Part shown: piece after piece, positions 1-6,738 of the stretch
Numbering within the stretch: position 1 is the first letter of the stretch
Layout of the letters: every line of letters begins with the position of its first letter
Assembly: GCA_030610915.1 (NCBI GenBank)
Contig: JAUWQS010000079.1
Span: forward strand, 1-7,239
Source of the DNA: Pseudomonadota bacterium
GTDB lineage: Bacteria; Desulfobacterota; Syntrophia; Syntrophales; JADFWA01
Length of the DNA stretch: 7,239 nt
Direction: 5' to 3'
Position numbers and translations under genes: made by a program
The notes under the pieces: generated by a model
Told to the model about the DNA's origin: nothing
Seen by the model: only the letters and a program-made list of their open reading frames with translations
The model's database searches: none

Positions 1-1014
1 GGTGTCGAGACATTCAGGGATATCAGTCTCGTAGAAAAGCTCAGGAAGGAGATTGAACAAGGATACACATTTGAAGATATTATTTCAAAAAATCACGCTG
101 TTCATGAGTTGTTCCAGATCCTGCCGGATGTGGCGGACAGCTTGAGCACAGTGCTGATAGAGGGTGAAAGCGGAACGGGAAAGGAACTTTTTGCCAGGGC
201 AATTCACAACTTGGGTTCGAGAAAAAACAGACCTTTTATTGCCGTCAATTGTGGGGCGCTGCCGGATACACTACTGGAATCCGAGCTTTTCGGCTATAAG
301 GCGGGGGCGTTTACCGATGCGAAAAAGGACAAACCCGGTCGCTTTAAACTTGCTGATAAGGGCACGATTTTTCTTGATGAGATAGGGGATATATCGCCTG
401 CGCTTCAGGTTCGCCTTTTACGTGTTCTTCAGGAAAAAACCTATGAGCCTCTGGGGGCTGTAGAAAGCGTAAAGGCAGATGTTCATATAATTACCGCTAC
501 AAATAAAAGATTATTCAAACTGGTCAAGGCCGGCAAATTCAGAGAGGACCTCTATTATCGAATCAATGTGATACAACTGGAGCTGCCCCCACTTCGCGAG
601 AGGATGGAAGATGTCCCGCTGCTGGTTGACCACTTTATAAGACGTTTCAATGACATGCAGAAAAAGGACGTTGCTGGAATTACTGAGGAAGCCCTTGCCT
701 GTCTGATGTCTTACGACTATCCGGGAAATATAAGAGAATTGGAAAATATCATTGAACGAGCCTTTATCTTGTGCAAGACAGAAATGATCGGAAAGGAGCA
801 CCTTCCCGAGCCGGTATGTTCGTTTTCCGGAGTGGACTACTCAAAACATGCGGAGGGGATGACGTTTAAGGACATGGAGACGATATTTTTAATCAATGTC
901 CTGCGCAGAAATAACTGGAATCGATTGAAGACTGCTCATGAGCTTGGCATCCATAAAAGCACGCTCTTCCGAAAAATCAAATCACTGGAAATAGAGATTC
1001 CCGGCAAAAAATAG
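1..1014 (+). CDS. sigma-54-dependent transcriptional activator (enhancer-binding protein), 5'-truncated by window
   Basis: AAA+ activator that hydrolyses ATP to open sigma-54 RNA polymerase promoters. The frame is open from base 1, so the start lies outside the window; the TTG at 109 is internal. Numbering from base 1: residues 1-20 look like the end of a PAS domain (VETFRDISLVEKL), so an N-terminal PAS sensor is inferred. Walker A GESGTGKE is at 55-62, the sigma-54 contact loop GAFTDA at 102-107 (canonical GAFTGA), Walker B GTIFLDEIGD at about 121-130, the arginine-finger segment FREDLYYR at 180-187, and a sensor II-like YPGNIRELEN further on. A Fis-type helix-turn-helix covers about 306-330 (NWNRLKTAHELGIHKSTLFRK). 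The ligand is unknown. Position next to NifX-like genes with -24/-12 promoters suggests it is the local activator, as DVU2106 is for the Desulfovibrio orp operons. The family call is very secure; the target assignment is inference. Confidence 0.96.
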   Translation, partial: GVETFRDISLVEKLRKEIEQGYTFEDIISKNHAVHELFQILPDVADSLSTVLIEGESGTGKELFARAIHNLGSRKNRPFIAVNCGALPDTLLESELFGYKAGAFTDAKKDKPGRFKLADKGTIFLDEIGDISPALQVRLLRVLQEKTYEPLGAVESVKADVHIITATNKRLFKLVKAGKFREDLYYRINVIQLELPPLRERMEDVPLLVDHFIRRFNDMQKKDVAGITEEALACLMSYDYPGNIRELENIIERAFILCKTEMIGKEHLPEPVCSFSGVDYSKHAEGMTFKDMETIFLINVLRRNNWNRLKTAHELGIHKSTLFRKIKSLEIEIPGKK

Positions 1015-1036: not shown

Positions 1037-1180
1037 TCGTAAAAAGTCTGAAAAACACTCTTTTGTCATTCTGGTGAGCCGAAGCCCTGAGTATAACGAA
1101 GGGGATAGCGAAGAATCTGATATCATTGAGATTCTTCGTCGCTCCGCTCCTCAGAATGACACTGCGTGGACTTTTTACGA
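1037..1180. repeat. MITE-like inverted-repeat element, copy 1
   Basis: A 144-bp element with perfect 12-bp terminal inverted repeats (TCGTAAAAAGTC at 1037-1048, GACTTTTTACGA at 1169-1180). Inner arms TGTCATTCTG (1064-1073) and CAGAATGACA (1152-1161) also pair, and a central hairpin pairs CGAAGAATCT (1109-1118) with AGATTCTTCG (1129-1138). No transposase is encoded. It begins 22 bp after the activator stop codon and ends 30 bp before the -24 element of the next promoter. The transcript could fold into a long hairpin and may help end the activator mRNA. A related copy in opposite orientation lies at about 2990-3137. Confidence 0.8.
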
Positions 1181-1210: not shown

Positions 1211-1226
1211 TGGCATGGTTTCTGCT
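1211..1226 (+). promoter_or_regulatory. sigma-54 (-24/-12) promoter
   Basis: TGGCATG-N4-CTGCT matches the consensus TGGCAYR-N4-TTGCW with one mismatch. The invariant GG (1212-1213) and GC (1224-1225) are separated by exactly 10 bp. Transcription would start near 1237, leaving a very short leader that still contains the AGGAG ribosome site just before the ATG at 1253. No pair of enhancer dyads like those at 2073-2120 is visible upstream; the usual enhancer distance is filled by the MITE-like element. Confidence 0.65.
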
Positions 1227-1252: not shown

Positions 1253-1642
1253 ATGAAAGTCGCAGTACCTGTCTGGGGCCATTTTGTTTCGACGGTTTTT
1301 GATTTTTGCGACCATCTTTTGATCGTGAACATAGAGTCTGGGCGGATAAAAGATCGGACAACGGTTCACTTCGCCGAAAATACGATTGCAGCCAAGGCCG
1401 TCAGATTGAGAAAAATTGGTGTTCAGACCCTTCTTTGCGGGGCAATTTCAAGACCCCTGGAAAGGATGATCGTTGCGTCAGGAATTGTGGTTATACCATT
1501 CTTGAGGGGAACGGCGGATGAGATACTTCAAGCCTATCTTACAGGCAATCTGTTAGATGGACGTTTTGCCTTGCCGGGCTGCCGCACCGCTGGATGGCAT
1601 CGCAGAAGAAGAGGAATGAGGAGCCGCGGCAGGTGTGGGTGA
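1253..1642 (+). CDS. NifX/NafY-fold (dinitrogenase iron-molybdenum cofactor biosynthesis-like) protein, 129 aa
   Basis: The protein starts MKVAVPVWGHFVSTVFDFCDHLLIV, typical of the Fe-Mo-cofactor-binding NifX/ORP superfamily (RNase H-like fold). The core continues through RLRKIGVQTLLCGAISRPLERM, with VIPFLRGTADEILQAYLTGNL near the end. The C-terminus LPGC followed by an Arg-rich tail (HRRRRGMRSRGR) is common in stand-alone family members. The ATG at 1253 is chosen over upstream in-frame codons because AGGAG lies at 1240-1244 and MKVAVP aligns with relatives; the longer frame would run back into the MITE-like repeat. It is the first gene after the -24/-12 promoter and is followed after 43 bp by a second NifX-like gene, probably in one operon. 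Members bind metal-sulfur clusters in other systems; here that is inferred. It contains four cysteines, unlike its neighbours. Confidence 0.88.
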   Translation: MKVAVPVWGHFVSTVFDFCDHLLIVNIESGRIKDRTTVHFAENTIAAKAVRLRKIGVQTLLCGAISRPLERMIVASGIVVIPFLRGTADEILQAYLTGNLLDGRFALPGCRTAGWHRRRRGMRSRGRCG

Positions 1643-1685: not shown

Positions 1686-2054
1686 ATGAAAATTGCGATT
1701 ACTTCCTATGGTAAGGATCTCTCCAGTAAAGTGGATCGAAGTTTTGGGCGTGCAAAGTGGTTTATCGTTGTTGATACTGAGTCAGGCATTTTTGAAGCAC
1801 ATGACAACAAGCAGAACGTAAGCCTACCCCAGGGCGCCGGCATACAGGCCGGTCAGAACGTCGCAAATCTGGGGGTTGATGCGATCCTGACCGGCAATAT
1901 TGGTCCCAATGCCTACAGAACGCTCAGCGCTGCTTCTGTTAAAATATTTCTTATCGAAAAAGGTATCGAGATTGTCGAGGATGCCCTTTCTGAATGGAAG
2001 GCTGGCCGCCTGAAAGAGGTGACGGAGGCAACTATCGAGGGACATTGGGTATAG
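1686..2054 (+). CDS. NifX/ORP-like protein, cysteine-free, 122 aa
   Basis: Single-domain NifX-fold protein. MKIAITSYGKDLSSKVDRSFGRAKWFIVVD is the characteristic N-terminus, followed by QGAGIQAGQNVANLGVDAIL, the family loop TGNIGPNAYRTL, and a final helix (VEDALSEWKAGRL). The start at 1686 is supported by AGGTGG at 1675-1680; an upstream GTG at 1635 would overlap the preceding gene and add a non-family leader. There is no cysteine anywhere, and the TGNCGPNA loop seen in the protein at 3903 has Ile in place of Cys. From memory, the D. gigas orange protein binds its Mo-Cu-sulfide cluster non-covalently, so lack of Cys does not exclude cluster binding. Its length matches single-domain ORP/NifX members. 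It probably shares the promoter at 1211 with the gene before it. Confidence 0.88.
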   Translation: MKIAITSYGKDLSSKVDRSFGRAKWFIVVDTESGIFEAHDNKQNVSLPQGAGIQAGQNVANLGVDAILTGNIGPNAYRTLSAASVKIFLIEKGIEIVEDALSEWKAGRLKEVTEATIEGHWV

Positions 2055-2072: not shown

Positions 2073-2120
2073 GTTGCATATCTGCAACCTTTACATAAAT
2101 ATAGGTTGCAAAATAGCAAC
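2073..2120. promoter_or_regulatory. tandem enhancer dyads (putative activator-binding sites)
   Basis: Two near-identical 16-bp dyads: GTTGCATATCTGCAAC (2073-2088) and GTTGCAAAATAGCAAC (2105-2120), both of form GTTGC-N6-GCAAC. They are offset by exactly 32 bp, about three helical turns. They lie roughly 105 and 137 bp upstream of the start predicted from the -24/-12 element at 2192-2207, the usual place for sigma-54 enhancer sites. The activator encoded at 1-1014 is the obvious candidate ligand; that link is inferred. Confidence 0.7.
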
Positions 2121-2191
2121 TCCTATTTTTCTTTATGACTTTCAAAGTATGTAACCCCTTGAAACGTGAAACTTTTATACGCAGCAGATTC

Positions 2192-2207
2192 TGGCACACT
2201 TTTTGAA
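2192..2207 (+). promoter_or_regulatory. sigma-54 (-24/-12) promoter
   Basis: TGGCACA-N4-TTGAA fits the consensus TGGCAYR-N4-TTGCW, with GG at 2193-2194 and the -12 dinucleotide GA (instead of GC) at 2205-2206, separated by exactly 10 bp. The expected start is near 2218, giving a leader of about 53 nt before the ATG at 2271. The -12 mismatch makes it weaker than the element at 1211, but the paired dyads upstream strongly support it. Confidence 0.68.
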
Positions 2208-2270
2208 ATATAAATTAGTAGAGTTTTAATTAGCTTTTGCGTAACAGTGAAAAACAAGGAGGTGATTTTA

Positions 2271-2558
2271 ATGCCAGGTGGAAATAGAACAGGACCGGCA
2301 GGGATGGGTCCGATGACAGGCAGGGCGGCAGGCCTCTGTGCAGGATATTCAGTGCCCGGATATATGAATCCCATTGCTGATGGAGGTTTTTTGGGAAGCG
2401 CTCCTTATGGCAATGTGGCGCCAGGCTATTCGGGGGGGTATGTTCCCTATGGACAGGCAGGATACTATGGCGGTTTTGGGAGATCTTTTGGATTTGGCAG
2501 AGGCTTCGGAAGAGGCTGGTCCGGCAGGGGTCGTGGATTTGGTCGTGGTCGGTGGTAG
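2271..2558 (+). CDS. DUF5320-type Gly/Tyr/Arg-rich small protein, 95 aa
   Basis: Short protein of unknown function. Its N-terminus (MPGGNRTGPAGMGPMTGR, then LCAGY and PGYMNP) is the DUF5320-type signature, followed by a Gly/Tyr-rich middle and a C-terminal tail of GFGRG/GRGRG repeats ending in RGRW. It has one cysteine (Cys23) and looks mostly disordered, with no signal peptide or membrane segment. The ATG at 2271 is preferred over the in-frame GTG at 2247 because AAGGAGGTG at 2255-2263 sits just upstream and the motif begins at MPGG. It is the first gene after the predicted -24/-12 promoter at 2192. Unlike the related protein at 3358 it lacks a coiled-coil tail. Arg-Gly-rich tails can bind nucleic acid or mediate assembly, but nothing here shows which. 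Confidence 0.85.
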   Translation: MPGGNRTGPAGMGPMTGRAAGLCAGYSVPGYMNPIADGGFLGSAPYGNVAPGYSGGYVPYGQAGYYGGFGRSFGFGRGFGRGWSGRGRGFGRGRW

Positions 2559-2608: not shown

Positions 2609-2833
2609 ATGCCAAGAGGTGATCGAACTGGACCGCAGGGGCAGGGGCCGCGAACGGGTCGTGGTTTAGGGCCATGTGGGACAGGAACAGGAGAAAATCC
2701 GGATTCCGGTCAGAATATCGGATTCTTCCGTAGACTGGGAAGGGGTCTGGGAATTGGCCGGGGAGGAAAAGGAAGAGGAATGGGGCAAGGTTCGGGTCGC
2801 GGACGTGGCGGACAGGGCCAGGGTCGCAATTAG
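2609..2833 (+). CDS. small Gly/Arg-rich protein with DUF5320-like N-terminus, 74 aa
   Basis: The N-terminus MPRGDRTGPQGQGPRTGRG and the single Cys23 align position for position with the proteins at 2271 and 3358, so this is a divergent family member. The rest is low complexity (GRGLGIGRGGKGRGMGQGSGRGRGGQGQGRN), with no hydrophobic core or coiled coil. GAGGAGGAG at about 2592-2600 is a strong ribosome site 8-9 nt before the ATG. It lies 50 bp after the preceding gene with no terminator between, so it is probably cotranscribed from 2192. The stop codon falls in the left arm of a 12-bp inverted repeat (2830-2885). Function unknown. Confidence 0.8.
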   Translation: MPRGDRTGPQGQGPRTGRGLGPCGTGTGENPDSGQNIGFFRRLGRGLGIGRGGKGRGMGQGSGRGRGGQGQGRN

Positions 2834-2885: not shown

Positions 2886-2902
2886 CCCGGATAAGCCGGA
2901 AA

Positions 2903-2951
2903 AGCTCAAAGTTCGAAGCTCAAAGCTGAAAGCTCAAAGCTCAAAGCTCAA
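2903..2951. repeat. heptanucleotide tandem repeat (AGCTCAA)n
   Basis: Seven uninterrupted 7-bp units; five are exact AGCTCAA (2903, 2917, 2931, 2938, 2945) and two are variants (AGTTCGA, AGCTGAA). A degenerate unit follows at 2952. There are no unique spacers, so this is not a CRISPR array. A second array with the same unit length but another sequence occurs at 6713-6738. Confidence 0.85.
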
Positions 2952-2989
2952 AGCAAAAAACAGAGCATCGCTATAAAGTTTGAGGCATT

Positions 2990-3137
2990 CGCAAAAAGTC
3001 CACACAGTGTCATTCTGAGGAGCCCTTCGCCCATGTCATTCTGAGGAGCGAAGCGACGAAGAATCTGGGACTCAGGATAAACTCCGCGACGAAGAATCTC
3101 AATGATATTAGATTCTTCGCTATTGCTCAGAATGACA
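2990..3137. repeat. MITE-like element, copy 2 (rearranged, one end missing)
   Basis: Related to the reverse complement of the element at 1037-1180. CGCAAAAAGTCCACACAGTG corresponds to the outer end of copy 1, and GAAGAATCTCAATGATAT-AGATTCTTCGCTAT matches its centre (one T/C change at the dash). Two internal segments are duplicated: TGTCATTCTGAGGAGC at 3008-3023 and 3034-3049, and GCGACGAAGAATCT at 3053-3066 and 3086-3099. The distal arm survives only as CTCAGAATGACA, and the terminal GACTTTTTACGA is absent. Copies 1 and 2 are in opposite orientation. Confidence 0.72.
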
Positions 3138-3357: not shown

Positions 3358-3732
3358 ATGCCAGGTGGAGATAGAACAGGACCGGCAGGGATGGGTCCGA
3401 TGACAGGCAGGGCAGCAGGTCTCTGCGCAGGATATCCAGCGCCAGGATATATGAATCCTGTTGGTGGCAGAGGTTTTGGTGGTTTTGGCCGTGGCGGAGG
3501 CTGGGGCCGTCGTAATCAGTTTTACGCAACCGGTTTGACCGGCTGGCAACGTGCCGCTTATGGTTACCCGGTTTATGCAGGGGCGGTTCCTTATGGAGTG
3601 CCGTACGGGCCAACAGTAACAAAGCAAGAGGAACTCGATGGGCTGAAAGGCCAGGCAGAGTACCTGGAGGATTCCCTGGAAGGTATTAAGAAACGCATGG
3701 CAGAGTTAGAAGAAAAAACCAAAGAGGGATAA
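3358..3732 (+). CDS. DUF5320-type protein with C-terminal coiled coil, 124 aa
   Basis: N-terminus MPGGDRTGPAGMGPMTGR with Cys23 in LCAGY, then PGYMNP, a short Gly/Arg/Phe-rich stretch, a conserved-looking aromatic block (NQFYATGLTGWQRAAYGYP), a Pro/Tyr/Gly segment, and a charged amphipathic tail from about residue 89 (TKQEELDGLKGQAEYLEDSL onward) predicted as a coiled coil. This layout is what I recall as full-length DUF5320; the 2271 product looks like a version without the tail. The ATG is supported by AAGGAGG at 3343-3349. The first 102 nt match the 2271 gene at 94 positions, after which the genes diverge. A terminator follows. Function unknown; the coiled coil suggests oligomerisation, and a similar tail on the 3903 protein suggests possible pairing (inference). 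Confidence 0.88.
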   Translation: MPGGDRTGPAGMGPMTGRAAGLCAGYPAPGYMNPVGGRGFGGFGRGGGWGRRNQFYATGLTGWQRAAYGYPVYAGAVPYGVPYGPTVTKQEELDGLKGQAEYLEDSLEGIKKRMAELEEKTKEG

Positions 3733-3902: not shown

Positions 3903-4565
3903 ATGAAAATAGCAGTAACAGCAACAGGTCCATCCCTGGATGATCAGGTTGAAGCTCGTTTTGGGCGGACTCCCTATTATTTGTTCGTAGATCCGGAGAC
4001 AATGGAATTTGAGGCCCTGCAGAATCCTAATGTTGCGGCGGGAGGCGGCGCCGGTATCCAGTCGGCGCAATTGATGTCGGATAATGGTGTTCAGTATGTT
4101 CTGACGGGAAATTGCGGGCCCAATGCGTTCCAGGTTTTCACGGCTGCAGGTATCCAGGTTATTGTGGGAGTCACTGGATCTGTCCGTCAGGCAGTTGAGC
4201 AATTTAAAGTCGGCGCCTTTACTGGAACCGACCAGGCCAATGTAGCGAGTCACTTTGGGGTGGGGGCAGGCGTGCCTCCGCAAAGTGGTCAAAGCGGAAT
4301 AGGCGGAGGCACGGGCATGGGTGGCGGTCGTGGTATGGGAATGGGCGGTGGTCGTGGCATGGGCGGCGGTCGCGGTATGGGAATGGGAGGCGGTCGTGGT
4401 ATGGGTATGACGGGGCAAACCGGCACTCCTGAAAATCTTGCACCTCAAGGAACCATGACGAAGGAAGAAGAATCAGCCGTGCTTAAGGAACGGGCACGTA
4501 TGCTTCAAGAGGAGCTCAAACGCGTTAAAGGGCAAATTGATGAAGTGGACAAAAAGGGGAAGTAA
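3903..4565 (+). CDS. NifX/ORP-domain protein fused to Gly-Met-Arg repeat and coiled coil, 220 aa
   Basis: Residues 1 to about 118 form a complete NifX/ORP domain: MKIAVTATGPSLDDQVEARF, GRTPYYLFVD, GGGAGIQSAQLM, the loop TGNCGPNAFQVF (the only Cys), VIVGVTGSVRQAVEQFKVG and ASHFG. Residues about 139-166 are two exact-length 14-residue repeats (MGGGRGMGMGGGRG-like). Residues about 185-220 are a charged helix (KEEESAVLKERARMLQEELK and on) predicted as a coiled coil. Single-domain relatives are near 120 aa, so about 100 residues are extra. AGGAAAGGGG at 3886-3895 supports the ATG. It follows a terminator and lies 211 bp before the Fe-S ATPase pair. Cofactor binding is inferred from the family; the fused tail may tether partners such as the coiled-coil protein at 3358. 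Confidence 0.9.
   Translation: MKIAVTATGPSLDDQVEARFGRTPYYLFVDPETMEFEALQNPNVAAGGGAGIQSAQLMSDNGVQYVLTGNCGPNAFQVFTAAGIQVIVGVTGSVRQAVEQFKVGAFTGTDQANVASHFGVGAGVPPQSGQSGIGGGTGMGGGRGMGMGGGRGMGGGRGMGMGGGRGMGMTGQTGTPENLAPQGTMTKEEESAVLKERARMLQEELKRVKGQIDEVDKKGK
4317..4400 (+). repeat. 42-bp tandem repeat (two copies) inside a CDS
   Basis: Two in-frame 42-bp units (4317-4358, 4359-4400), each encoding M-GGGRG-M-G-M-GGGRG, plus a partial third (ATGGGTATG). Differences between units are synonymous third-base changes, so the peptide is preserved while the DNA has drifted. Confidence 0.85.
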
Positions 4566-4776: not shown

Positions 4777-5622
4777 TTGAAGCTAACTATCGCAAGCGGA
4801 AAGGGCGGCACGGGAAAGACAACAATGGCAACAAATCTTGCCCTGACTCTTGCCGATATGGGAAAAACAGTCGAGCTGCTGGATTGTGATGTCGAAGAGC
4901 CGAACTGCCATATCTTTCTGAAACCGGAAATTGAATCATCCACCCCTGTCACTGTGCTCAAGCCGGAAGTTATTGAGGGAAAGTGTACGGGTTGCGGTAT
5001 TTGCGCGGATGTCTGCGAATTCAGCGCTATTGCCGTTATAAAAGGTAAGGTGCTGATATTTCCTGAACTATGTCATGGTTGCGGCGCATGCAAACTATTT
5101 TGTCCTGAAGATGCAATTATAGAAACAACAAGAGAGGTAGGTATTGTCGAGGAAGGAAAAAGCAACAATGTCGGTTTTGTTCAGGGATTGCTTAATATAG
5201 GAGAACTTATGTCCCCTTCGGTTATCCACGCAGTCAAAGCGGCGGCCAAGGAAGGTGAAATTGTTCTCATTGACTCTCCTCCCGGAACATCCTGTCCTGT
5301 TATCGAGGCAGTTAAAGGTTCAGACTTTGTTGTCCTCGTTACGGAACCGCCCCCTTTTGGTCTTAATGATTTAGAACTCGCCGTTGGCATGGTCAGAAAG
5401 CTGGATATACCATTTGCGGTGGCCATTAATCGATCTGATATCGGCGATGAAGACGTGAAGGAATACTGTAAAAAAGAAAAAATCGAGATTGTCCTGGAAA
5501 TACCCGATGATCGCAGAATCGCCGAGGCTTATTCGCGAGGGGAAATGGTAATTCATGCGTTGCCGGATTATCGAAAATTATTTGAAGAGTGCTGGATGCG
5601 CATAAAGGTGTTAAGCTCATGA
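4777..5622 (+). CDS. MinD/ParA-family P-loop ATPase with inserted 2[4Fe-4S] ferredoxin domain, 281 aa
   Basis: Deviant Walker A GKGGTGKTT at residues 8-16, switch-type motif DCDVEEPN, then an inserted bacterial ferredoxin domain with Cys70/73/76/80 and Cys99/102/105/109 (both CxxCxxCxxxC), returning to the ATPase fold with IVLIDSPPGTSCP (Asp166) and VLVTEPPPFGLNDL. Such proteins are often misannotated as cobyrinic acid a,c-diamide synthase; they are related to MinD, NifH and Mrp ATPases. It begins with TTG: GGAAAGGA at 4759-4766 precedes it and MKLTIASGKGG is the exact family start. It overlaps the next gene by 4 nt (ATGA). Homologues are, as I recall, part of the Desulfovibrio ORP complex. 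Role here: ATP-dependent cluster or electron handling for the NifX-like proteins (inference). Confidence 0.93.
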   Translation: MKLTIASGKGGTGKTTMATNLALTLADMGKTVELLDCDVEEPNCHIFLKPEIESSTPVTVLKPEVIEGKCTGCGICADVCEFSAIAVIKGKVLIFPELCHGCGACKLFCPEDAIIETTREVGIVEEGKSNNVGFVQGLLNIGELMSPSVIHAVKAAAKEGEIVLIDSPPGTSCPVIEAVKGSDFVVLVTEPPPFGLNDLELAVGMVRKLDIPFAVAINRSDIGDEDVKEYCKKEKIEIVLEIPDDRRIAEAYSRGEMVIHALPDYRKLFEECWMRIKVLSS

Positions 5623-6506
5623 AGGAAATCGTTGTAATCAGCGGAAAAGGCGGCACCGGGAAAACAAGTATTGTGGCGTCCTTTGCGGCGCTGGCGGGGA
5701 AGAAAGTCCTGGCGGACTGCGATGTGGATGCGGCCGATCTGCACCTCGTCCTCAATCCCGTAATAGAACACCGGGAAGATTTCAGCGGCGGTAAGAAAGC
5801 CATGATACTGGAAAATGAATGCCTAAGCTGCAATCGATGCATAGAAGAATGTCGTTTCGATGCGATACATTACCCTGTTTTGAATAACGGAGAGATAGCA
5901 GATACCCCTCAAATAAATCCCATTTTCTGCGAGGGTTGCGGAGTTTGTATGCGCGTCTGCCCGGCTGAGGCAATCTCTTTTGAACCGGCAGTAAACGGTG
6001 AGATGTACATCTCTTCGACGAATCATGGACCGATGGTGCATGCGAGACTCGGTATGGCCGAGGGCAACTCGGGGAAACTGGTAACGCAAATTCGCCAGGA
6101 GGCCCGCTCGATTGCGGAGAGAGAAAGACTCGACTATATTATAATCGATGGTTCGCCCGGCATCGGATGCCCCGTTATTGCATCTATAACAGGCGCTGAT
6201 CTCGTTCTCGTTGTAACCGAACCCACTCTGTCAGGCCGGCACGATTTACTGCGGGTGTCGGAACTCACCGCGCATTTTCAAATTCCAACGATTGTGTGCG
6301 TCAATAAGTGGGATTTAAACCCCGAAGTCGCGGAGCAGATTGAAGCGGAAGCGAAAGAATGTGGTATTAAGGCAGCGGGGAGAGTCCGATACGATAACGC
6401 AATTACAAAGGCACAGATTATGAAGATCAGCGTTGTTGAATATACCGACGGCGCCGTCTCTGAAGATATCAGGCAGGTCTGGAAAAATACGATTTCAAGG
6501 TTATAG
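5619..6506 (+). CDS. MinD/ParA-family P-loop ATPase with inserted 2[4Fe-4S] ferredoxin domain, paralogue, 295 aa
   Basis: Same architecture as the preceding gene: Walker A GKGGTGKTS at residues 9-17, DCDVDAADLH, ferredoxin insert with Cys68/71/74/78 (CLSCNRCIEEC) and Cys104/107/110/114 (CEGCGVCMRVCP), then IIIDGSPGIGCP and LVVTEPTLSGRHDL. The ATG at 5619 overlaps the TGA of the first gene as ATGA, indicating translational coupling and probably a stoichiometric or heteromeric pair; AAAGGTG at 5604-5610 is the ribosome site. The insert is longer between its two cluster motifs than in the first paralogue (26 versus 19 residues from Cys4 of one to Cys1 of the next). Proximal-cluster Cys78 is followed by Arg rather than the usual Pro. 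Paired copies are typical of anaerobe ORP-type loci. Confidence 0.93.
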   Translation: MKEIVVISGKGGTGKTSIVASFAALAGKKVLADCDVDAADLHLVLNPVIEHREDFSGGKKAMILENECLSCNRCIEECRFDAIHYPVLNNGEIADTPQINPIFCEGCGVCMRVCPAEAISFEPAVNGEMYISSTNHGPMVHARLGMAEGNSGKLVTQIRQEARSIAERERLDYIIIDGSPGIGCPVIASITGADLVLVVTEPTLSGRHDLLRVSELTAHFQIPTIVCVNKWDLNPEVAEQIEAEAKECGIKAAGRVRYDNAITKAQIMKISVVEYTDGAVSEDIRQVWKNTISRL

Positions 6507-6738
6507 GGTTCACGGTTAAGCGAATGAAGGAGAGACGGAGCTCCGAGATGAATGCGGAGTTCCTCTGGTTCTTGTGATACGCAGAAAAGTTTTGCACGGA
6601 AGTTCGTAGGGTGGATTAAGCGGAGCGAATCCACCAAAAACTCTGATCGCTTTGGTGGATTCGTCGCTTACGCTCCTTAATCCACCCTACGCCTTGGATG
6701 CGACCAACCGTTGAACCGTGAACCGTGAACCGTGAACC
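6507..6738. repeat. nested inverted repeat with (GAACCGT)n heptanucleotide arm
   Basis: GGTTCACGGTT (6507-6517) begins immediately after the ATPase stop codon. Its complement AACCGTGAACC occurs three times in overlapping register at 6714-6738, inside a 7-bp tandem array (GAACCGT, 3.7 units, 6713-6738). A second palindromic element (6605-6691) lies inside these arms. Function unknown; it may act as a transcript-end hairpin or simply be repetitive DNA. Confidence 0.75.
6605..6691. repeat. palindromic dispersed-type repeat (GTAGGGTGGATTAAG family)
   Basis: Outer arms CGTAGGGTGGATTAAG (6605-6620) and CTTAATCCACCCTACG (6676-6691) are perfect 16-bp complements. Inner arms CGAATCCACCAAA (6626-6638) and TTTGGTGGATTCG (6651-6663) add 13 bp, with a bulge on the right side. 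This GTAGGGTGGATTA...AATCCACC type occurs as dispersed repeats in many proteobacterial genomes (from memory). It encodes nothing. Confidence 0.85.

What the first reader, a model, noticed from the sequence alone, without database searches (positions are those of the whole stretch)
2073..2207. Complete sigma-54 control module: twin GTTGC-N6-GCAAC enhancers plus a -24/-12 promoter
Two 16-bp dyads with identical half-sites sit exactly 32 bp apart, so on the same helical face, about 105 and 137 bp upstream of the start expected from TGGCACA-N4-TTGAA. This drives the small DUF5320-type genes, not only the NifX-like ones. It suggests a recognition sequence for the activator encoded at 1-1014, and that the glycine-rich proteins belong to the same regulon.
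Basis: partly seen in the sequence, partly recalled or inferred. Interest (0 to 1): 0.75.

Follow-up and report, generated by a model that had tools for sequence, protein, structure and literature searches.

The report
Redox-type switch for iron-sulfur genes
Two matching DNA docking sites and a promoter sit in front of a set of iron-sulfur-related genes, and the same arrangement recurs next to the same activator gene in many related bacteria, so it is very probably that activator's control switch: a member of a known kind of system rather than a new kind.

Summary
Perfect GTTGC-N6-GCAAC dyads lie at 2073-2088 and 2105-2120 (32 bp apart), with a -24/-12-like element at 2192-2207.

The activator at 1-1014 belongs to an OrpR/DVU2106-like family. 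In fetched relatives of its recognition-helix class with ORP-type genes downstream, 20 of 24 have the dyad, 16 a twin, 23 a strong -24/-12 (shuffles 0.85, 0, 0.8); twin spacing is 31-34 bp in 22 of 23 twin loci. An unbiased palindrome enumeration ranks GTTGC spacer 6 first. In 17 further loci, all 13 with a promoter also have a dyad. Family consensus: GTYGC-N6-GCRAC.

Corrections. The -12 box reads GA, not GC, so P2 scores 12.7, below the cut-off of 13 used for relatives. The only IHF-like site has one mismatch. In relatives the module precedes the NifX-like gene; a dyad plus promoter directly before DUF5320 was found in 0 of 41 DUF5320 loci. Here the NifX-like gene keeps its own -24/-12 (1211-1226), but a MITE-like insert (1037-1180) occupies its enhancer position.

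Novelty: a new member of the known OrpR/orp kind.

The parts
1..1014 (+). C-terminal 337 aa of a sigma54 activator (AAA+ with GAFTDA loop, Fis-type HTH, recognition helix GIHKSTLFRK); its N-terminal part lies outside the window
   Evidence: Pfam Sigma54_activat 2.6e-67, HTH_8 2.9e-08; 181 of 395 genomes sampled from one phylum hold a close relative at E<=1e-104; relatives carry CX8CX3C in 120 of 126
1037..1180 (.). MITE-like insert with 12-bp perfect terminal inverted repeats, in the stretch where relatives keep the dyads of the NifX promoter
   Evidence: second, inverted copy at about 2980-3123; no dyad with up to 3 mismatches to GTYGCN6GCRAC in 1001-1260
1211..1226 (+). P1: -24/-12 element TGGCATGGTTTCTGCT, 42 bp before the NifX-like start codon
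   Evidence: score 13.7 of 14.7; 4 of 2000 shuffles of 1015-1252 reach it; distance in L306, L310, L311, L312, L314 is 39, 40, 40, 31, 41 bp
1253..1642 (+). NifX/ORP-like protein (NifXa)
   Evidence: Pfam Nitro_FeMo-Co 2.3e-07; weak MrpORP model match, below cut-off
1686..2054 (+). NifX/ORP-like protein (NifXb)
   Evidence: Pfam Nitro_FeMo-Co 4e-19
2073..2088 (+). enhancer dyad 1, GTTGCATATCTGCAAC
   Evidence: family consensus GTYGCN6GCRAC
2105..2120 (+). enhancer dyad 2, GTTGCAAAATAGCAAC, 32 bp from dyad 1
   Evidence: spacing 31-34 in 16 of 17 FY-class and 6 of 6 W-class twin loci
2152..2164 (-). weak IHF-like site TTTCAAGGGGTTA, 1 mismatch to WATCARNNNNTTR; may be chance
   Evidence: at <=1 mismatch relatives are 10 of 24 against 4.35 in shuffles, maximum 10
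2192..2207 (+). P2: -24/-12-like element TGGCACACTTTTTGAA, with GA instead of GC at -12; expected start near 2218
   Evidence: dyad 2 to -24 distance 87 bp, relatives 79-125
2256..2263 (+). ribosome-binding site AAGGAGGT of the first DUF5320 gene
   Evidence: sequence
2271..2558 (+). DUF5320 protein with Gly/Arg/aromatic-rich tail, first gene after P2
   Evidence: Pfam DUF5320 4.6e-12; composition
2609..2833 (+). DUF5320 protein, second copy
   Evidence: Pfam DUF5320 1.5e-07
3358..3732 (+). DUF5320 protein, third copy
   Evidence: Pfam DUF5320 3.6e-22
3903..4565 (+). NifX/ORP domain fused to a DUF5320-like Gly/Arg tail (NifXc)
   Evidence: Pfam Nitro_FeMo-Co 1.2e-22 and DUF5320 3.1e-07; PDB 2wfb, deposited as protein ORP, E=3.3e-18
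4777..5622 (+). MinD/Mrp-type ATPase with 4Fe-4S ferredoxin motifs
   Evidence: Pfam ParA 2.6e-18, Fer4 6.5e-13
5619..6506 (+). second MinD/Mrp-type ATPase with 4Fe-4S ferredoxin motifs
   Evidence: Pfam CbiA 1.1e-11, Fer4_7 2.8e-10

Best explanation
The twin dyads are the enhancer (operator pair) of the sigma54 activator encoded at 1-1014, an OrpR-type protein. Its dimers bind the two GTTGC-N6-GCAAC sites on one face of the helix, assemble into an active AAA+ oligomer, loop the intervening DNA and remodel sigma54-RNA polymerase held at the -24/-12 element 2192-2207. That drives the DUF5320 genes and, in the same direction, probably the rest of the cluster (NifXc and two Fe-S ATPases). By analogy with the cysteine-bearing PAS of its relatives and the DvH OrpR system, the signal is probably redox or Fe-S status. 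Shown here: the sites, their conservation with the activator, spacing, geometry and operon neighbours. Inferred: binding, looping, promoter activity, the extent of the transcript and the signal.
For: Unbiased enumeration of 1024 half-sites x 8 spacers over 43 loci downstream of activators with an F/Y-type helix gives GTTGC spacer 6 first (16 of 43 loci at <=1 mismatch, 0.0 in mononucleotide shuffles). Of 24 such loci with ORP-type genes next, dyad 20, twin 16, -24/-12 23, dyad and promoter in order 19; dinucleotide shuffles give 0.85, 0 and 0.8 for the first three. Twin spacing is 31-34 in 22 of 23 twin loci of both helix classes. In 17 loci not used for the motif, 14 have a dyad, 11 a twin, 13 a promoter, and all 13 with a promoter have the dyad. 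The R-type helix class has no dyad downstream of the activator (0 of 21). HK/HR helices carry dyads in 26 of 35 against 9 of 39 for others. In L305 a dyad plus promoter sits with NifXa, 3 kb from the activator. Among 120 loci (1.29 Mb) there are 67 dyad-plus-promoter pairs, 54 of them within 400 bp after the activator gene, against 8 in one shuffle of all. A blind scan for exact twins reached 4 ORP clusters with the activator among the 120 loci it returned, spacings 32, 32, 32, 33, in three Eisenbacteria MAGs and one deltaproteobacterium. That paired dyads as such are not random: exact twins in 7 of 395 genomes of one phylum, reversed pattern 0 of 395; but none of these 7 is an ORP cluster.
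Against: P2 has GA at -12; in the closest relatives (L304-L315) the best-scoring site of all 12 has GC. P2 scores 12.7 and fails the cut-off of 13 used for relatives, which by its construction demands GG and GC. The only IHF-like site has 1 mismatch, a level not better than chance in relatives. In relatives the module precedes NifXa, not DUF5320 (0 of 41 with dyad plus promoter directly before DUF5320). In W-class loci with ORP genes only 10 of 31 show the dyad; in the 9 unclassed activators none does. GTTGC-N6-GCAAC twins also occur in many unrelated places (116 of 120 loci are not activator-plus-ORP clusters). The loci compared are related, so the counts are not independent.
Confidence: 0.82

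Rival explanations
1. The dyads do bind this activator, but the promoter that matters is P1 (1211-1226) before the NifX-like gene. P2 is decayed, and the dyads act on P1 from about 0.9 kb downstream.
For: P1 keeps GC at -12 (13.7 against 12.7 for P2) and a distance to NifXa like that of relatives (42 against 31-41 bp). Its own enhancer position is taken by a MITE-like insert.
Against: The dyad 2 to -24 distance of P2 (87 bp) lies inside the range of relatives (79-125). The DUF5320 genes would then have no promoter of their own that I could see.
Confidence: 0.09
2. The dyads are the operator of some other regulator that happens to use GTTGC half-sites.
For: Exact twins lie before strong -24/-12 elements beside other genes and in other phyla (15 of 120 genome loci, which include the 4 ORP clusters, against 6 of 120 viral loci), and 21-bp-spaced twins lie beside other genes in three genomes.
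Against: In the orp context the dyad tracks the activator gene and its recognition helix, and spacing there is mostly 31-34 bp.
Confidence: 0.05
3. The dyads are RNA hairpins that end the NifX transcript; the promoter match is chance.
For: Dyad 2 with the following T-rich stretch matches a terminator-like pattern, and 2060-2140 folds better than shuffles (z -3.6).
Against: Only 5-6 pairs with 3 GC pairs; any palindrome folds. The conservation is of sequence, pairing and near-fixed spacing with a promoter downstream, which a terminator does not need. Both functions could coexist.
Confidence: 0.04

Closest known systems
orp operons of Desulfovibrio vulgaris Hildenborough with activator DVU2106 (OrpR)
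   Same: Cognate one-component sigma54 activator with GAFTDA loop encoded beside ORP/NifX and Fe-S ATPase genes; palindromic activator sites upstream of sigma54 promoters (DvH: -131 and -88; here about -137 and -105); perfect IHF consensus between site and promoter in 7 of 24 relatives. DvH facts from passages and one section of PMC3897727 and a table passage and one section of PMC4641369.
   Different: Co-directional instead of two divergent operons; DUF5320 genes included; NifX domain and ATPase are separate genes, not the MrpORP fusion; recognition helix HKSTLFRK, against SKDTLRR-type in relatives from the family of Desulfovibrio cuneatus, where no GTYGC dyad was seen downstream of the activator (the upstream side was not tested). 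The DvH palindrome sequence could not be read.
IssA of Pyrococcus furiosus (iron-sulfur storage)
   Same: NifX/IPR003731-type domain with a glycine-rich tail (NifXc); DUF5320a tail rich in Gly, Arg and aromatic residues, the chemistry proposed for the IssA tail (passages of PMC5524996).
   Different: Tail sequences were not compared with IssA; NifXc is not net basic (-1) and ends in a charged stretch without glycine repeats; the basic tails are on separate proteins; thioferrate never tested.
MrpORP (DVU2109)
   Same: Fe-S ATPase and NifX-type domain serving the ORP complex, in a sigma54-controlled cluster (passages of PMC6345978).
   Different: In the window these domains are on separate proteins, all below the MrpORP model's cut-off.

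Membership tests
OrpR/orp sigma54 regulatory system | sigma54 AAA+ activator with Fis HTH (GAFTDA loop in DvH) | tested here: met
   GAFTDA read in the translation; DvH loop from the table passage
OrpR/orp sigma54 regulatory system | N-terminal PAS with cysteines (Fe-S sensing; the sensing itself is recalled, the paper is not held) | tested here: inconclusive
   Window starts after that part; CX8CX3C in 120 of 126 relatives (of the 6 without, 3 are shorter frames of 253-377 aa and 3 are only 43-47% alike); PAS fold in the L306 relative
OrpR/orp sigma54 regulatory system | adjacent ORP/NifX and ferredoxin-type ATPase genes | tested here: met
OrpR/orp sigma54 regulatory system | palindromic activator sites upstream of a sigma54 promoter of the orp genes | tested here: met
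   -12 box imperfect in the window
OrpR/orp sigma54 regulatory system | IHF site between activator sites and promoter | tested here: inconclusive
   window: one site with 1 mismatch, 2152-2164 minus strand, none perfect; relatives: perfect consensus in 7 of 24, shuffles 0.32
OrpR/orp sigma54 regulatory system | binding of the cognate activator to the palindromes | not testable with these tools
   needs a purified protein
IssA-type iron-sulfur storage | NifX-type domain followed by basic Gly/Arg/aromatic tail | tested here: inconclusive
   NifXc has a Gly/Arg stretch but net charge -1; DUF5320a is net +8 with GFGRGF-type repeats
IssA-type iron-sulfur storage | binds thioferrate | not testable with these tools
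   biochemistry

The most novel reading that the evidence does not exclude
The DUF5320 proteins are free-standing versions of the IssA tail: arginine/glycine/aromatic-rich polypeptides that bind or grow thioferrate together with NifX-type domains. The twin-dyad module is a redox-gated switch, read by an Fe-S PAS activator, that gives this bacterium a dedicated promoter for making iron-sulfur storage material.
Probability: 0.2. Interest if true: 0.75.

Novelty: new member of a known kind. Interest (0 to 1): 0.45.

Why it matters
It suggests that operator and recognition helix vary together, and it places the uncharacterised DUF5320 glycine-rich proteins in the orp regulon. Two papers in the searched library contain 'DUF5320', one on plant heat-shock factors and one on G-quadruplexes in archaea by title (search listing only).

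Tried and rejected
As a substitute, exact single dyads were counted in 8 relatives' genomes: 39 against 21 for the reversed pattern. By my reading of the positions, 20 of the 39 lie in clusters at the selected loci and 19 are single, i.e. singles are at background level (these genomes were chosen because they hold a twin).

L026, beside a NifX-like gene, is a possible fifth by eye (a weak match). The viral scan also stopped at 120; 0 of those 120 loci matched cluster proteins other than the activator at E<=1e-4 (activator-only matches were not printed). The 7 genomes with exact twins (one of them, G005, was the centre of the sample and already known) do not lie at ORP clusters.

Single-motif -24/-12 counts alone are uninformative: 29 hits against 28.75 expected at up to 3 mismatches. 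No sigma70-type promoter was found in 1900-2400. The GTYGC consensus and the score cut-offs were chosen after seeing part of the data; searches are the checks against that. The loci are from the same two families as some loci used earlier. Of 17, L469 has a dyad but no promoter, and L466, L476, L477 have neither; no cluster gene follows the activator in the stretches held for these four. The HK/HR split was chosen after seeing the helices; NRSTLWRK activators also carry the dyad (6 of 6), and the Fisher value 1.8e-5 ignores relatedness (14 changes of the dyad label on the tree, shuffled mean 24.9, minimum 17).

Full report
What is there. The window holds, all on the + strand, the 3' part of a sigma54 activator gene (1-1014), two NifX/ORP-like genes (1253-1642, 1686-2054), three DUF5320 genes (2271-2558, 2609-2833, 3358-3732), a NifX-DUF5320 fusion (3903-4565) and two MinD/Mrp-type ATPases with ferredoxin motifs (4777-5622, 5619-6506), followed by a partial ARMT1-like gene. 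The NifX part of the fusion matches PDB 2wfb, deposited as protein ORP, at E=3.3e-18. Between the second NifX gene and the first DUF5320 gene lie two perfect dyads, 2073-2088 and 2105-2120, and a -24/-12-like element at 2192-2207.

More than chance. Any pair of identical perfect dyads with 5-bp arms within 60 bp appears in 7 of 1000 shuffles of the window, and this is the only such pair in it. A -24/-12 score as high as that of P2 occurs in 15 of 2000 shuffles of 2121-2270. In 395 genomes sampled from the phylum of a Desulfobulbaceae MAG, exact twins occur in 7 and the reversed control pattern in 0; these 7 are not at ORP clusters, so they speak for paired dyads in general, not for this cluster.

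The activator family. The window's activator searched against those 395 genomes finds close relatives (E<=1e-104) in 181. I fetched regions around 56 places taken, 20 loci from the family of Desulfovibrio cuneatus found through the ATPase, and 60 more places; the matches beyond those were not fetched. These gave 126 activator genes over 250 bits, including four from the twin scan. CX8CX3C is present in 120 of 126, at residue 49 or later and upstream of the ATP-binding motif wherever that motif was recognised (100 of 120), and 100 of 126 have the loop GAFTDA, the loop listed for DVU2106 (table passage). In a full-length relative the cysteines fall within a PAS fold. That the known OrpR protein senses redox through an Fe-S PAS is from recall: the paper did not appear among the 10 listed of 145.

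For the 43 activators with an F/Y-type recognition helix, all 1024 half-sites with spacers 2-9 were counted in the 220 bp around and after the activator stop. GTTGC with spacer 6 came first (16 of 43 loci at <=1 mismatch; 0.0 in mononucleotide shuffles), GTCGC with spacer 6 at 13. For 53 W-type activators the top was TTGCA spacer 4 (17 of 53), the same dyad shifted by one base, with GTTGC spacer 6 in 12. For 21 R-type activators no pattern reached 5 loci.

Geometry. In F/Y-type loci with ORP-type genes next (24), the dyad GTYGC-N6-GCRAC (<=1 mismatch) is in 20 (shuffles 0.85), a twin in 16 (0), a -24/-12 scoring >=13 in 23 (0.8), both in order in 19. In F/Y-type loci without such genes (19): dyad 4, twin 1, promoter 12. 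W-type with ORP genes (31): 10, 5, 27; W-type without (22): 3, 1, 4. R-type (21): 0, 0, 2. Unclassed (9): 0, 0, 6. Twin spacing: F/Y 31 (4), 32 (4), 33 (7), 34 (1), 23 (1); W 31 (2), 32 (4). The last dyad lies 79-125 bp before the -24 in the 24 loci where both were found in that range; 87 in the window. In 17 further loci, 14 have a dyad, 11 a twin at 30-32 bp, 13 a promoter, and all 13 with a promoter have a dyad. Perfect IHF consensus between dyad and promoter occurs in 7 of 24 loci against 0.32 in shuffles; at <=1 mismatch it is 10 against 4.35 (maximum 10), so only the perfect matches are informative. The window has one 1-mismatch site, 2152-2164 on the minus strand, and no perfect one.

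Specificity. Across 120 loci (1.29 Mb) 67 dyad-plus-promoter pairs (counted per dyad, promoter >=12.5) were found, 54 within 400 bp after the activator, 43 of them with a NifX-like gene next; one shuffle of all loci gave 8. In L305 the activator and NifX-like gene are 3 kb apart and a dyad plus promoter is beside the NifX-like gene, so it is not merely a feature of the activator's 3' end. Among 74 activators with a promoter downstream, HK/HR helices have the dyad in 26 of 35, others in 9 of 39 (relatedness not removed).

What is peculiar to this window. The NifX-like gene has its own good -24/-12 (1211-1226), 42 bp before its start against 31-41 bp in five relatives, but the stretch where relatives keep the dyads contains a 144-bp MITE-like insert with 12-bp terminal repeats (1037-1180), and no dyad with up to 3 mismatches is found in 1001-1260. 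The perfect twin sits instead before DUF5320. None of 41 other DUF5320-bearing loci has a dyad and promoter within 320 bp before DUF5320; six (L306, L310, L400, L422, L434, L448) have a -24/-12 there without the dyad, and one (L325) a dyad without promoter (promoter >=13; the laxer scan, >=12.5, also shows none). I read this as an enhancer-promoter module present at a second position, with the first one damaged. Whether P1 still works, perhaps from the dyads 0.9 kb downstream or from sites before the activator gene, is open.

Mechanism. Most likely the activator binds the two dyads on one helical face, loops to sigma54 polymerase at P2 and drives the DUF5320-NifXc-ATPase genes. Shown: sites, conservation, geometry, neighbours. 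Inferred: binding, looping, transcript, signal. The imperfect -12 box is the main reason for doubt about promoter strength; P2 would have missed the cut-off of 13 that I applied to relatives, a cut-off that by construction accepts only sites with GG and GC. In the 12 closest relatives L304-L315 the best site has GC.

Known or new. The DvH orp operons use the same logic: cognate sigma54 activator, palindromic sites, IHF between (passages and one section of PMC3897727). The operator sequence of DvH could not be read (figure not held; the 2011 paper not held). The present case is therefore a new member of that kind with a defined operator and DUF5320 as first gene. The IssA paper proposes that a cationic, glycine- and aromatic-rich tail binds thioferrate (passages of PMC5524996). 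The DUF5320a protein (31 Gly of 95 residues, net charge about +8) and the fusion NifXc suggest, no more, an iron-sulfur storage role.

Noticed in passing
L355, L356 (Desulfobulbaceae; twin dyads at 8512/8545 and 7346/7379): Exact twins 33 bp apart with a -24/-12 lie before what by eye looks like a multihaem cytochrome and cytochrome b gene pair, next to an activator of over 820 aa with four CX8CX3C motifs (four PAS stretches confirmed for L355). Activators with 2-4 CX8CX3C motifs recur (8 of 126).
   Followed up: partly
L343, L346, L347: Exact GTTGC-N6-GCAAC twins spaced 21 bp lie beside a gene that looks like a response regulator and others that look like chemotaxis receptors (by eye), perhaps another regulator using the same half-sites.
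   Followed up: no
L005, L048, L071, L075, L095, L098: Exact twins 19-40 bp apart followed by strong -24/-12 elements in Clostridia and other Firmicutes and in a Phycisphaerae MAG; other sigma54 activators may share this recognition sequence.
   Followed up: no
window 1037-1180 and about 2980-3123: Two inverted copies of a MITE-like repeat flank the NifX and first two DUF5320 genes.
   Followed up: partly
window about 6606-6692: A further long inverted repeat (TAGGGTGGATTAAG...CTTAATCCACCCTA) lies between the second ATPase and the ARMT1-like gene, seen by eye.
   Followed up: no
window 2901-2963: Short tandem direct repeat (AAAGCTCAAAGCTC...) after the second DUF5320 gene.
   Followed up: no
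L062, L112, L090: A third dyad lies upstream of the activator gene itself, perhaps for autoregulation as reported for DVU2106.
   Followed up: no
L400: In this relative from the family of Desulfovibrio cuneatus a DUF5320-like gene is the first gene of the ATPase operon divergent from the OrpR-type activator, with a -24/-12 before it and no GTYGC dyad; L393 looks similar in gene order.
   Followed up: partly
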